The notes under the pieces: model-generated
Database searches by the model: none
Told to the model about the DNA's origin: nothing
Seen by the model: only the letters and a program-made list of their open reading frames with translations
Assembly (NCBI GenBank): GCA_902774215.1
Contig: CACYHU010000006.1
Location: 1 to 64,000 of the forward strand
DNA from: an uncultured Chloroflexota bacterium
GTDB lineage: Bacteria; Chloroflexota; Anaerolineae; Anaerolineales; Anaerolineaceae
Direction of reading: 5' to 3'
DNA length: 64,000 nucleotides
Translations under genes and position numbers: made by a program
Shown: positions 12,474 through 15,309 of the stretch, one piece after another
Layout of the letters: each line of letters begins with the position of its first letter
Position numbering within the stretch: position 1 is the first letter of the stretch

Positions 12474-12562
12474 GGGGAGGTGCCGGAGTGGTTGAACGGG
12501 ACCGCCTGCTAAGTGGTTAATGGGGTAATACTCATTCGGGGGTTCGAATCCCCCCCTCTCCG
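12474..12562 (+). tRNA. tRNA-Ser(GCU)
   Basis: The cloverleaf can be traced by hand. The acceptor GGGGAGG (12474-12480) pairs with CCTCTCC (12555-12561) with one G-U. The D arm starts CCGGAGTGG. The anticodon stem ACCGC/GTGGT encloses the loop CTGCTAA with anticodon GCT (12508-12510). A long variable arm is present, as expected for serine, and the T arm GGGGG-TTCGAAT-CCCCC is perfect. The discriminator is G, and CCA is not encoded. A TATAAT box lies at 12458-12463. It reads AGC/AGU serine codons. Confidence 0.95.
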
Positions 12563-12566
12563 CTGA

Positions 12567-12591
12567 AACGCCGCATCAGAGCGGTGTTTTT
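12567..12591 (+). terminator. terminator of the tRNA-Ser gene
   Basis: Four bases after the tRNA, AACGCCGC pairs with GCGGTGTT (one G-U) around a six-base loop, and the right arm runs into a T5 tract. This is a typical intrinsic terminator for a single tRNA gene. Confidence 0.7.
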
Positions 12592-12594
12592 CAT

Positions 12595-12620
12595 TTAAGG
12601 AAACGCTGATCAATGACAGT
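12595..12620. mobile_element. single end of the MITE-like family
   Basis: TTAAGGAAACGCTGAT is the exact inverse of the right end of the element at 8802-8927, and the following bases (CAATGACAGT) match that element's left end at 8814-8826 in most positions. No partner end is visible to the right, so this is a solo end or a truncated copy. It lies just after the tRNA-Ser terminator. The remaining sequence from about 12621 to 12995 contains no supported gene; the 78-codon frame at 12704-12940 lacks a ribosome site and any recognisable feature. Confidence 0.45.
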
Positions 12621-13007
12621 CCGTTTGAATTTAAAACCCCTTTTCGGAAACCGGCCGTTGCAGGGAGTCTGACACGGGAAGAGCCGGACCGGAGCCTTTC
12701 AAAATGCCCCGGAATCTGAGAGGCGGACAACAGTTTATATGCAGAAAAACGAAGTATCTGCCTATTAAACCGATGATTTTTATGCAGAAAAAAAGATTTT
12801 TCATCCTTTCCGTGACGGAAACGGAAGACTGTAACAGATTCTTTCCCTGCTGCTGCTTTATAAAAACGGATTCGATGCCGGGAAATATATCTCTTTTGAA
12901 GAACAGTTATTTTATTGGTTTTATTTTTCCCGGTGTGTAAGGGTCATGAGATATAATTTTTGTAAAAGTTTCAGGTAAAACAGATCAAATGAAAGGTGTT
13001 TTTTCAG

Positions 13008-14228
13008 ATGTGGAGATCATCAGCTGTCATCGGAGGCAGTAATGAAAAAAATAATATTGTAAAAAGTGTACAGATCTGCCTGCTTTGGCTCTTTTGCCTT
13101 CTGTTTCCGCTTTCACCCGTTTCGGCAGGGGATCCACTGACGCTGCGGATCGCGCTTTATGAACCGGTGCCGGATCAGGAACGTTTCCGGAAAGCGATCC
13201 GGGATGAATGGAGTGCGCGACATCCGGATATCCCGCTGGAATTCGCCGATTGGAGCTGTTACGGACATGATCCGACCGATGATCTGGATGTTTTCGTTTA
13301 TGACGCGATGTATTTTGACAAATACCTGGATCAGGGATGGCTTCTTCCGCTGGCGGATGATGAGATCGAAAACAGGGAGGATCTGATCCCCTTCGCGCTG
13401 GAAGCCTGTACGGCCGGCGGGACAGTCTACAGCATTCCCGAATTTCTGTGTGCGGATTTTCTGTTCACGCGCAGGGATGACGCTGCCATGCCGGAGGTTG
13501 ATACCATCCCGGAACTTTTTGAGGTGCTTGGCACTGTCGGCACGGAGGATGTCCCTTTTCAGGAAAATGACGGGCTGCTGGTTAATCTCTCCACCAAATC
13601 ATTTCTGTTTACCTGGTATTTTCAGGCACTGGCCGATGCTGAACAGGCTGATGCCGCGGATCTTCTTCCGGTCGATCCGGACCAGCTTTCCCGGGAAGCG
13701 TACGATTCTCTTGCGATGATCCGCAAAATGACAGGGCTTGCCCAGATGACCTGGAAACCGGAGAACGGAGACGAATATGCCCGCGGAGAATCCTTTGCAC
13801 ACGGGTACGGCCGGGCTTTTATCGGTCCCAGTGAAAACATGGGGCTGATGGGAGATGAAGCGGAAAACATGGATCTCCGGCTTTTTTCCATGACGGATGA
13901 CAGCAATATTCCCTATTTTTATGCAGATCATGCTGCTGTGAACGCGAATATCCGTCCCGACAAAAGGGCGCTTGCAGTGGAGCTTCTGAATGTGATCACG
14001 GGAACGAAGGTTATGGTCAGTGCCTGTTCTCCAGCCGCTTCGGGAGAAAATTACCAGTATCTGCTTCCCGCCCGGATCAGTGCTTATGATGAGCTCGGAA
14101 AAATGGACCCTGTCTATGAGCAGTTTAGGGTCCTGGCGGTGGATCCGGAAGCCCGTATTTACGCAATTTCATACGAGGATCTGAAATCCCTGTCTGAGAA
14201 TGAGCTGCTTATGTCGCTGCTGAAATAA
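13008..14228 (+). CDS. secreted thiaminase I (thiamine pyridinylase)
   Basis: This is a thiaminase I, the enzyme that displaces the thiazole of thiamine with a base or other nucleophile (EC 2.5.1.2), with a periplasmic-binding-protein fold. The match to the Paenibacillus thiaminolyticus enzyme (recalled, not searched) runs the full length: VPDQERF, LEFADW, DDLDVFVYD, LPFAL-like IPFALEA, GRAFIG and YQYLLPAR. The nucleophilic cysteine (Cys113 there) is in EFLCADF at 13449-13451; the base (Glu241 there) is in GPSENM at 13833-13835. A hydrophobic signal ending SPVSAG shows export. The uninterrupted frame starts ATG 13008, but the best start by ribosome site and signal peptide is ATG 13042, one base out of frame. 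No thiamine gene or TPP riboswitch is adjacent. Confidence 0.85.
   Translation: MWRSSAVIGGSNEKNNIVKSVQICLLWLFCLLFPLSPVSAGDPLTLRIALYEPVPDQERFRKAIRDEWSARHPDIPLEFADWSCYGHDPTDDLDVFVYDAMYFDKYLDQGWLLPLADDEIENREDLIPFALEACTAGGTVYSIPEFLCADFLFTRRDDAAMPEVDTIPELFEVLGTVGTEDVPFQENDGLLVNLSTKSFLFTWYFQALADAEQADAADLLPVDPDQLSREAYDSLAMIRKMTGLAQMTWKPENGDEYARGESFAHGYGRAFIGPSENMGLMGDEAENMDLRLFSMTDDSNIPYFYADHAAVNANIRPDKRALAVELLNVITGTKVMVSACSPAASGENYQYLLPARISAYDELGKMDPVYEQFRVLAVDPEARIYAISYEDLKSLSENELLMSLLK
13032..13051 (+). other. A7 tract and out-of-frame natural start of the thiaminase gene
   Basis: GGAGG at 13032-13036 sits five bases before ATG 13042, followed by AAAAAAA (13045-13051). Read as it stands, this ATG gives only six codons (MKKIIL, stop at 13060). 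With one more A it would read MKKNNIVKSV and continue into the hydrophobic signal peptide and the enzyme. So the ideal start is present but shifted by one base in a homopolymer. Transcriptional slippage, phase variation or a sequence error would each explain it. Confidence 0.6.
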
Positions 14229-14302
14229 CCGGTATCCGTCTGTGCCTGATTTTTATTTATTGCATGATCCATTGTTCTGAGTCTGTTTCAAATTTCCATG
14301 GA

Positions 14303-14494
14303 TTATGGAAGTTCGCTGCCATTGATTATACCTTTGAAAAGAGAAAAATAAGGGGCAGAGGCCTTACCAGAGGAGACAATAACTTCATCATTTTTCTGCG
14401 GCCCGACATGAAATGAAGAGTTCTCTTCAATATAATTCATCACTCCTTTGCATTTGTATGCAAAAGGAGATGAGTCAATTTCAATAGTTAACAT
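14303..14494 (-). CDS. short hypothetical frame after the toxin remnant
   Basis: A 63-codon frame directly downstream of the PIN toxin remnant. It has no clear ribosome site, and I recognise no family. It is AT-richer than the surrounding genes, like the toxin-antitoxin pair, so it may be part of the same imported, decaying segment. It may not be expressed. Confidence 0.2.
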   Translation of the reverse strand: MLTIEIDSSPFAYKCKGVMNYIEENSSFHVGPQKNDEVIVSSGKASAPYFSLFKGIINGSELP

Positions 14495-14516
14495 TTGATG
14501 ATATAGCTGAATCCAT

Positions 14517-14903
14517 TTATTTCTGAAAACTTATCTCAGGATTTAGAATTTCGAGCTGCAATTCATCAATCTTTTTAAATCCTGAATCTGCTGTCATCAA
14601 AACAAGATCACTTTCAATTGCTGATGCTGCAATAATAGCATCCGGAAGTTTTATATTATATTTTCTTCTGAGCTGTATTGTCATGTTTTTTATTTCATTG
14701 GTTATCAAAATTGGCAAACTTCCGTTTAGAAAACCACCGATTTTCTTTTCCTCATCATCGGTAATCTTTGAATAAGATAGTAACTCCATTTAACTGATAA
14801 TTGAAAATGCGAATCTACAGGTTATAAACGGCTTCATACAACTATTACCGGATAAATAATACAAAACAGCATTTGTATCTGCGAGAAAATCAATTCCATT
14901 CAT
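14517..14903 (-). pseudogene. PIN-domain toxin (VapC-like), interrupted by a stop codon
   Basis: The full-length frame begins MNGIDFLADTNAVLYYLSG, with the first PIN aspartate in LADTN, and continues to FAFSIIS. A TAA at 14790-14792 then interrupts it, and the same frame resumes MELLSYSK. The second half has the later PIN aspartates in LPDAIIAA and LMTADSGF. In intact relatives the interrupted position is usually an acidic residue before MELLS, so a GAA to TAA change is the simplest history. The complete protein would be an RNase toxin of about 128 residues. The start overlaps the antitoxin gene by 14 bases, as in normal toxin-antitoxin operons. A restart at the ATG after the stop would lack the N-terminal active-site aspartate. 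Confidence 0.75.
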
Positions 14904-15096
14904 CTCTCACATTCCTTTGAAATTCCATTCCATCGATTGGATTTTTAAGACATCCAAAAAATACAGCTGTTCCCGAAGCGTTTGCAGTTTTATTCTTTTC
15001 AGCTTTGAAAAGTATATAATCAATGAATTCCGCAATTTCACTTAAATATTCTTCAGGAACTGAGTGTATTTGTTTTTCTACCATTACGTATGTCAT
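14890..15096 (-). CDS. antitoxin of the PIN toxin pair (DUF2281-like)
   Basis: A 68-residue protein with the pattern VPEEYLSEIAEFIDYILFKAE, typical of small DUF2281-type antitoxins that pair with PIN toxins. The second half is short and polar and probably folds on the toxin. AAGGA lies six bases before the ATG. It overlaps the toxin start, so the two were a single operon. With the toxin broken by a stop, this gene may be kept only by chance or by cross-regulation of other loci. Base composition is AT-richer than the neighbouring genes, which suggests acquisition. Confidence 0.65.
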   Translation of the reverse strand: MTYVMVEKQIHSVPEEYLSEIAEFIDYILFKAEKNKTANASGTAVFFGCLKNPIDGMEFQRNVRDEWN

Positions 15097-15309
15097 ATCT
15101 CATCCTTTCGCTGCAAAATCCATTTTTTATCTTGATGTAATTTTAACACATATCTTCAATAAAAAGCTGACTTTTTTAGGAAAGGTTGTACTCAACATAT
15201 TTTGACGGCTATATATAATTGTTCTTTTGTGTTTGATCTTCGCTGCAGAACATTGTTCTGAACCGCTGCAAATTTTGCTTGTTTGTGGTAAGATATATAC
15301 AGGTTAATT

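What the first reader, a model, noticed from the sequence alone, without database searches (positions are those of the whole stretch)
13008..14228. Secreted thiaminase I in a probable Anaerolineae genome
The encoded protein matches thiaminase I along its length and keeps both catalytic residues: the cysteine in EFLCADF (13449-13451) and the glutamate in GPSENM (13833-13835), equivalent to Cys113 and Glu241 of the Paenibacillus thiaminolyticus enzyme. It has a signal peptide. Thiaminase I is known from few bacteria, mainly Paenibacillus and Clostridium. Secreted in a shared habitat it would destroy vitamin B1 or salvage its pyrimidine. It stands alone, with no thiamine gene and no TPP riboswitch nearby, so an antagonistic or base-exchange role is as likely as salvage. 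The host and habitat are not known from the sequence.
Basis: partly seen in the sequence, partly recalled or inferred. Interest (0 to 1): 0.85.

Follow-up and report, generated by a model that had tools for sequence, protein, structure and literature searches.

The report
Thiaminase I gene in a Chloroflexota
A bacterium of the phylum Chloroflexota, probably from a ruminant's stomach, carries a gene for a probably secreted enzyme that destroys vitamin B1, although no gene for re-joining the pieces was found in its genome, so starving its neighbours is a likelier role than recycling.

Summary
In detail: window 13008-14228 encodes a full-length thiaminase I (TIGR04541, 340 bits, cut-off 175), with the catalytic Cys (13449) and Glu (13833) in register with the Paenibacillus enzyme. 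It is rare: over the cut-off in 1 of 396 sampled genomes of its class, matched in 3 of 14 of its genus. The two congeneric copies share another locus and are broken, each lacking one catalytic residue, yet pass the cut-off. One belongs to a Chloroflexi MAG, RUG13631; the nearest outside relatives are Bacillota MAGs, one from goat rumen. The gene sits in a tRNA-Ser spot that is empty in one relative and filled differently in another. Caveats: the best ribosome-binding site plus ATG is out of phase; two usually aromatic positions are proline; the MAG is 91% complete. A new member of a known family; activity untested.

The parts
13008..14228 (+). Thiaminase I (thiamine pyridinylase) ORF, 406 aa, with putative Sec signal peptide (residues 1-40)
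   Evidence: TIGR04541 340 bits; PF22141 91 bits; 2thi and 4kys by sequence; hydropathy
13449..13451 (+). Codon of catalytic Cys148 (Cys113 of 2thi)
   Evidence: Alignments; checked
13833..13835 (+). Codon of catalytic Glu276 (Glu241 of 2thi)
   Evidence: Alignments; checked
13032..13062 (+). GGAGG (13032-13036) and ATG (13042) out of phase with the main frame; stop at 13060-13062
   Evidence: Sequence, translation as it stands
12474..12563 (+). tRNA-Ser (GCT) on the left of the variable spot
   Evidence: ARAGORN and Rfam; present in G612 and, in the other orientation, in G743
12573..15277 (.). Variable spot holding the gene: empty in G743, other cargo in G612
   Evidence: blastn and tblastn of the window against L067-L070; L067 ORFs; L069 sequence
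14517..15096 (-). Low-GC toxin-antitoxin-like remnant (PIN/VapC part 14517-14789; small upstream ORF 14890-15096, antitoxin role guessed)
   Evidence: PF01850 34.8 bits on 14517-14789; ORFs; GC about 32%

Best explanation
The ORF encodes a secreted thiaminase I. Outside the cell it cuts thiamin at the methylene bridge: the cysteine, activated by the glutamate, displaces the thiazole, and a nucleophile such as an amine, pyridine or thiol takes the pyrimidine (mechanism from the known family, recalled). Shown here: homology, catalytic residues, a leader that looks like a signal peptide, a variable locus, and a thiamin gene set in which only uptake and pyrophosphorylation were found. Inferred: the enzyme is active, and its benefit is depriving neighbours of a shared vitamin (as shown for myxobacterial thiaminase I) rather than salvage. 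It most likely belongs to a rumen bacterium.
For: Family and active site. Host-like base composition at the three codon positions (0.62/0.39/0.55, against 0.55-0.63/0.32-0.40/0.55-0.60 in six neighbouring genes; the PIN remnant is 0.41/0.27/0.26), so it looks like a coding gene at home in this genome. No ThiC (0 of 21 genomes, G000 included), ThiM (2 of 21 over cut-off, not G000), ThiE (2 of 14 over cut-off, not G000) or ThiN (0 of 14); thiamin pyrophosphokinase in 11 of 14 including G000. The one TPP riboswitch found in G000 precedes a permease, an NMT1/THI5-type binding protein (PF09084, 199.6 bits) and an ATPase, not the thiaminase. Accessory locus. Precedent: secreted thiaminase I starves an auxotroph, and the double C/E mutant is inactive (PMC10499793, passages). 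Rumen relatives.
Against: The producer itself seems to need intact thiamin, so the enzyme could harm it. Two positions that are aromatic in most relatives are proline. The best SD-ATG is out of phase. Both congeneric copies are broken. G743 and G759 share the transporter and lack a thiaminase hit. Absences rest on a 91%-complete MAG, and ThiD, thiazole synthesis and other transporters were not searched. No activity, expression or habitat datum for this genome. The predicted structure was poor (mean pLDDT 58.7).
Confidence: 0.5

Rival explanations
1. Salvage: the enzyme breaks external thiamin or its analogues, and the cell imports the pyrimidine (through the riboswitch-controlled ThiXYZ-like transporter) or the thiazole and rebuilds thiamin.
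For: NMT1/THI5-type binding protein behind the TPP riboswitch; in Paenibacillus the thiaminase gene lies in an operon with thiM, thiD and thiE (PMC5627462, passages).
Against: No ThiE or ThiN hit in G000 or in the near relatives that share the transporter (G612, G743, G759, G760), and no ThiM hit in G000, G612, G759 and G760 (G743 was not among its 21 genomes). The gene stands apart from the transporter.
Confidence: 0.12
2. A decaying gene: the thiaminase is being lost in this genus, and the window copy is the least damaged remnant.
For: Two of three genus copies lack an active-site half: G612 residues about 143-251, G760 from about 269 on, with a stop in its leader too; the SD-ATG of the window copy is out of phase; two unusual substitutions.
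Against: 406 open codons, both catalytic residues and normal codon-position composition; in-frame starts exist at 13008 and 12996; an assembly error is possible. The window copy is not at the locus of the broken ones.
Confidence: 0.25
3. Antivitamin or base-exchange chemistry, or destruction of toxic thiamin analogues, rather than plain thiamin removal.
For: Thiaminase I accepts many nucleophiles (recalled); in Paenibacillus, and in a second species that the passage prints only as a code (Clostridium by the title of its reference), it sits in an operon with bacimethrin genes (PMC5627462, passages).
Against: No such genes recognised around the window copy; nothing specific supports it.
Confidence: 0.08
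4. A thiamin-binding protein without catalysis, reverted to the solute-binding role of its fold.
For: Substitutions at positions 18 and 239 (2thi numbering); fold shared with solute-binding proteins.
Against: Cys and Glu are kept; no transporter gene recognised beside it; SBP_bac_1 is under its cut-off.
Confidence: 0.05

Closest known systems
Thiaminase I of Paenibacillus thiaminolyticus (PDB 2thi, 3thi, 4thi)
   Same: 37-39% identity over the mature chain, depending on the alignment; catalytic Cys and Glu; extracellular (PMC5627462 abstract)
   Different: No thi or bacimethrin operon and no riboswitch near the window gene; Tyr18 and Tyr239 are proline (PMC5627462, passages)
Clostridial thiaminase I (PDB 4kys)
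   Same: Best sequence match in the PDB, 1.8e-83, and best fold match of the poor model
   Different: Stands alone; the Clostridium gene lies in a bacimethrin operon (PMC5627462, passages; species name by reference title)
Thiaminase I of Bacillota MAGs (RUG14113, RGIG3509 from goat rumen, UBA3680)
   Same: 39-41% identity in the best tblastn segment, Cys and Glu kept
   Different: They form their own clade (support 80/96); lipobox-like leaders in two of the three (RUG14113, UBA3680, by eye); in RUG14113 a Xan_ur_permease gene (PF00860) follows directly
Myxobacterial thiaminase I CcThi1
   Same: Secreted and starves thiamin auxotrophs (PMC10499793, passages); works like our best reading
   Different: About 18-19% identical to 2thi and 4kys according to that paper; not compared with the window protein here

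Membership tests
Thiaminase I (TIGR04541, thiamine pyridinylase, EC 2.5.1.2) | Full-length match to the curated profile above its cut-off | tested here: met
   340.4 bits against 175, profile 27-373 of 381. The cut-off alone is not enough: broken copies of G612 (248.9) and G760 (212) also pass
Thiaminase I (TIGR04541, thiamine pyridinylase, EC 2.5.1.2) | Catalytic cysteine and activating glutamate | tested here: met
   C148 and E276 in register with C113 and E241 of 2thi
Thiaminase I (TIGR04541, thiamine pyridinylase, EC 2.5.1.2) | Aromatic and acidic residues lining the pocket (list recalled) | tested here: inconclusive
   Y16, Y50, D64, Y222, Y270 and D272 kept; Y18 and Y239 are proline
Thiaminase I (TIGR04541, thiamine pyridinylase, EC 2.5.1.2) | Periplasmic-binding-protein fold with Cys and Glu close together | tested here: inconclusive
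   Model of low confidence (pLDDT 58.7); best Foldseek hits 4kys and 3thi, TM 0.45; distance not measured
Thiaminase I (TIGR04541, thiamine pyridinylase, EC 2.5.1.2) | Export signal | tested here: inconclusive
   Hydrophobic stretch ending VSA-G; no predictor run; start codon uncertain
Thiaminase I (TIGR04541, thiamine pyridinylase, EC 2.5.1.2) | Base exchange on thiamin with a nucleophile | not testable with these tools
   Needs an assay
Extracellular solute-binding protein (SBP_bac_1) | Profile match above cut-off | tested here: not met
   18.5 bits against 26

The most novel reading that the evidence does not exclude
A thiamin-auxotrophic Chloroflexota of the rumen carries, at an accessory locus that turns over quickly, a secreted thiaminase I used against neighbours that depend on the shared vitamin. 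Together with related genes in rumen Bacillota MAGs it is an overlooked genetic source of the thiaminase activity long reported in ruminant gut.
Probability: 0.25. Interest if true: 0.75.

Novelty: new member of a known kind. Interest (0 to 1): 0.5.

Why it matters
Thiaminase in the gut of ruminants has been tied to thiamin deficiency and cerebrocortical necrosis since about 1970, and its source was sought (Edwin and Jackman 1970, Roberts and Boyd 1974, Boyd and Walton 1977, seen only as reference titles); [quoted passage not shown] Gene sequences in uncultured rumen-type bacteria make the source question testable with existing metagenomes and metatranscriptomes. The case also shows that a family cut-off calls two broken genes thiaminase, which matters for gene surveys. 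No paper in the library searched holds both 'thiaminase' and 'Anaerolineae'; five hold 'thiaminase' and 'Chloroflexi', with only one or two mentions of each word (listing only); of six with 'thiaminase', 'rumen' and 'metagenom' I saw passages of one, the rest as a listing.

Tried and rejected
Solute-binding protein of another family: rejected. Plain vertical descent of one gene in the genus: disfavoured. Window and G612 share 93% of LDH but only 48% of thiaminase, while G612 and G760 share 62% of thiaminase and 84% of LDH, and the loci differ. A single-protein scan of genome contigs found nothing; the alignment scan found nine loci. A viral-contig scan found none. The structure model was too poor to measure the Cys-Glu distance. 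Integration repeats at the tRNA: only short imperfect repeats. Promoter and terminator scans did not exceed shuffles. Synteny could not be judged in G760 (other neighbours) or G759 (only LDH matched in the stretch fetched). The transporter behind the riboswitch has no thiamin-specific NCBIfam hit over a cut-off: its best hits are taurine, sulfonate and Sao transporter models, all under their cut-offs.

Full report
The observation. The ORF at 13008-14228 is real and is a thiaminase I. TIGR04541 scores 340.4 bits against a cut-off of 175 over nearly the whole profile, PF22141 scores 91 against 27, and the nearest solved chains are thiaminases (4kys 1.8e-83, 2thi 9.7e-77). Cys148 and Glu276 fall on Cys113 and Glu241 of 2thi. 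Its composition at the three codon positions matches six neighbouring genes. Rfam finds only a tRNA-Ser in the window at gathering score.

Two blemishes. First, the strongest ribosome-binding-site-like sequence and ATG (13032-13044) lie in another frame and stop after six codons. Either translation starts in frame at 13008 or 12996, with a longer leader, or the 5' end of this copy is out of phase in the cell or in the assembly; I cannot tell. Second, the positions of Tyr18 and Tyr239 of 2thi are proline. In the other rows of my 12-row alignment position 18 is Tyr or Phe in all, and position 239 is Tyr, Phe or Leu wherever the row reaches it. That these positions line the pocket is recalled.

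Rarity and relatives. Over the cut-off: 1 of 396 sampled genomes of the class. In that other genomes had weak hits under the cut-off, within profile positions 1-178 in every listed row, as expected of solute-binding proteins; so did 3 of the 14 control genomes. G612 and G760 were not in that sample. By protein: 2 of 400 sampled genomes of the order at E 1e-10 and 3 of 14 of the genus at E 1e-5. In the scan of genome contigs 54 stretches matched a pattern and nine encoded relatives: three Bacillota MAGs (one titled goat rumen, one RUG-coded, one UBA3680), Paenibacillus dendritiformis, RUG13631 (Chloroflexi; the same contig as G612 C41), three Rhodococcus or Rhodococcoides and one Kiritimatiellae from sheep omasum. 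Plasmids: 3 of 72,556 records, two of them the same Rhodococcus strain. That 'RUG' means rumen uncultured genome is recalled. The habitat of the window's own genome is inferred from these relatives only.

The genus copies. G612 has 273 codons that lack residues about 143-251, including the Cys. G760 has 252 codons that end before the Glu; the search also counted a stop in the leader part of its match. Both lie between an EamA gene (93% identical between the two genomes) and a nitroreductase gene (84%), so they are one ancestral locus, damaged differently. Both still pass the TIGR04541 cut-off (248.9 and 212 bits). In a tree of 12 rows the three genus copies form one clade (100/99), with G612 and G760 as sisters (100/97) and the window copy outside them, although by LDH the window genome is nearer to G612 (93%) than G760 is (84%). 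The window copy is thus probably a separate copy or a transfer within the clade, not the ortholog at that locus. Two rows (Bradyrhizobium, Kiritimatiellae) have long branches, and 4 of 9 inner branches are not strongly supported.

The locus. Left (two-component genes, LDH, tRNA-Ser) and right (15310 onward) flanks are collinear with G612: eight genes at 84-97% protein identity, a ninth cut by the end of the stretch at 79-87%. Between them G612 holds an unrelated 528-codon ORF, and G743 has only about 0.2 kb between its tRNA-Ser, which there lies on the other strand, and the next gene. G760 and G759 were not informative. The window spot also holds a low-GC PIN/VapC remnant. This is an accessory-gene spot.

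Thiamin metabolism of the own genome (91% complete). ThiC: 0 of 21 genomes including G000; control 13 of 14. ThiM: over cut-off in 2 of 21, not G000, where nothing reached E 0.001; control 8 of 14 over the cut-off. ThiE: over cut-off in 2 of 14, not G000, where nothing reached E 0.001; control 11 of 14. ThiN: 0 of 14; control 5 of 14. Thiamin pyrophosphokinase: 11 of 14, G000 included; control 6 of 14 over the cut-off. TPP riboswitch: 7 of 14; one found in G000, where 141 to 150 of 350 first-look candidates were scored, so more cannot be excluded. It stands ahead of a permease, an NMT1/THI5-type binding protein and an ATPase (for the latter two I chose starts inside longer ORFs). NCBIfam gives these three only general transporter hits under cut-off, so 'ThiXYZ-like' rests on the Pfam family and the riboswitch. 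The permease follows the riboswitch in five of the seven genomes (G000, G612, G743, G759, G760), of which G743 and G759 have no thiaminase hit. NMT1/THI5-type proteins are known to bind the pyrimidine half or its relatives (recalled); with no ThiE or ThiN, import of intact thiamin is the simpler reading here. The organism looks like an auxotroph for whole thiamin, so cutting thiamin yields nothing it can rejoin by known routes.

Mechanism. The chemistry follows from the family. That leaves antagonism as the best reading: in PMC10499793 (passages) a secreted thiaminase I stops an auxotrophic oomycete and has no effect on the prototrophs tested or on organisms that salvage the products. The weak point is that the producer seems to need thiamin too. 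Gene decay (0.25) is the main rival.

What is new. The family is known; its occurrence in this lineage was in no paper that held both 'thiaminase' and 'Anaerolineae' (none), and the five papers with 'thiaminase' and 'Chloroflexi' were seen as a listing only. The value lies in giving sequences to the old question of who makes thiaminase in the rumen.

Noticed in passing
window 12802-12828 (+): A short stretch outside any called gene reads HPFRDGNGR in one frame, the Fic-family motif (recalled; read by eye), followed soon by a stop: a likely Fic-gene remnant between the tRNA-Ser and the thiaminase.
   Followed up: no
window 14281-14380; L068 10744-10848: About 100 bp just downstream of the thiaminase matches a stretch of G760 contig C94 (73%, E 1.4e-11), away from the shared LDH gene; perhaps a small repeat.
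   Followed up: no
L026 2042-2863; L043 1489-2247 (-): Broken thiaminase copies lacking a catalytic residue still pass the curated TIGR04541 cut-off, so automatic annotation would probably call them thiamine pyridinylase.
   Followed up: yes
L029 5901-7223: A Xan_ur_permease family gene (PF00860, 257.5 bits) follows the thiaminase directly in the Ruminococcaceae MAG RUG14113; a possible importer of the pyrimidine product.
   Followed up: partly
L025 4866-6164: A Bradyrhizobium plasmid protein annotated as extracellular solute-binding protein keeps the Cys and Glu but scores 109.6 bits, under the TIGR04541 cut-off of 175: a possible distant thiaminase.
   Followed up: no
G749 and G624 (L040, L041, L044, L045, L053, L056): Two genus members have ThiM, ThiE and a TPP riboswitch close together on small contigs and no pyrophosphokinase hit, unlike most of the genus; they may be contaminated or misplaced.
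   Followed up: no
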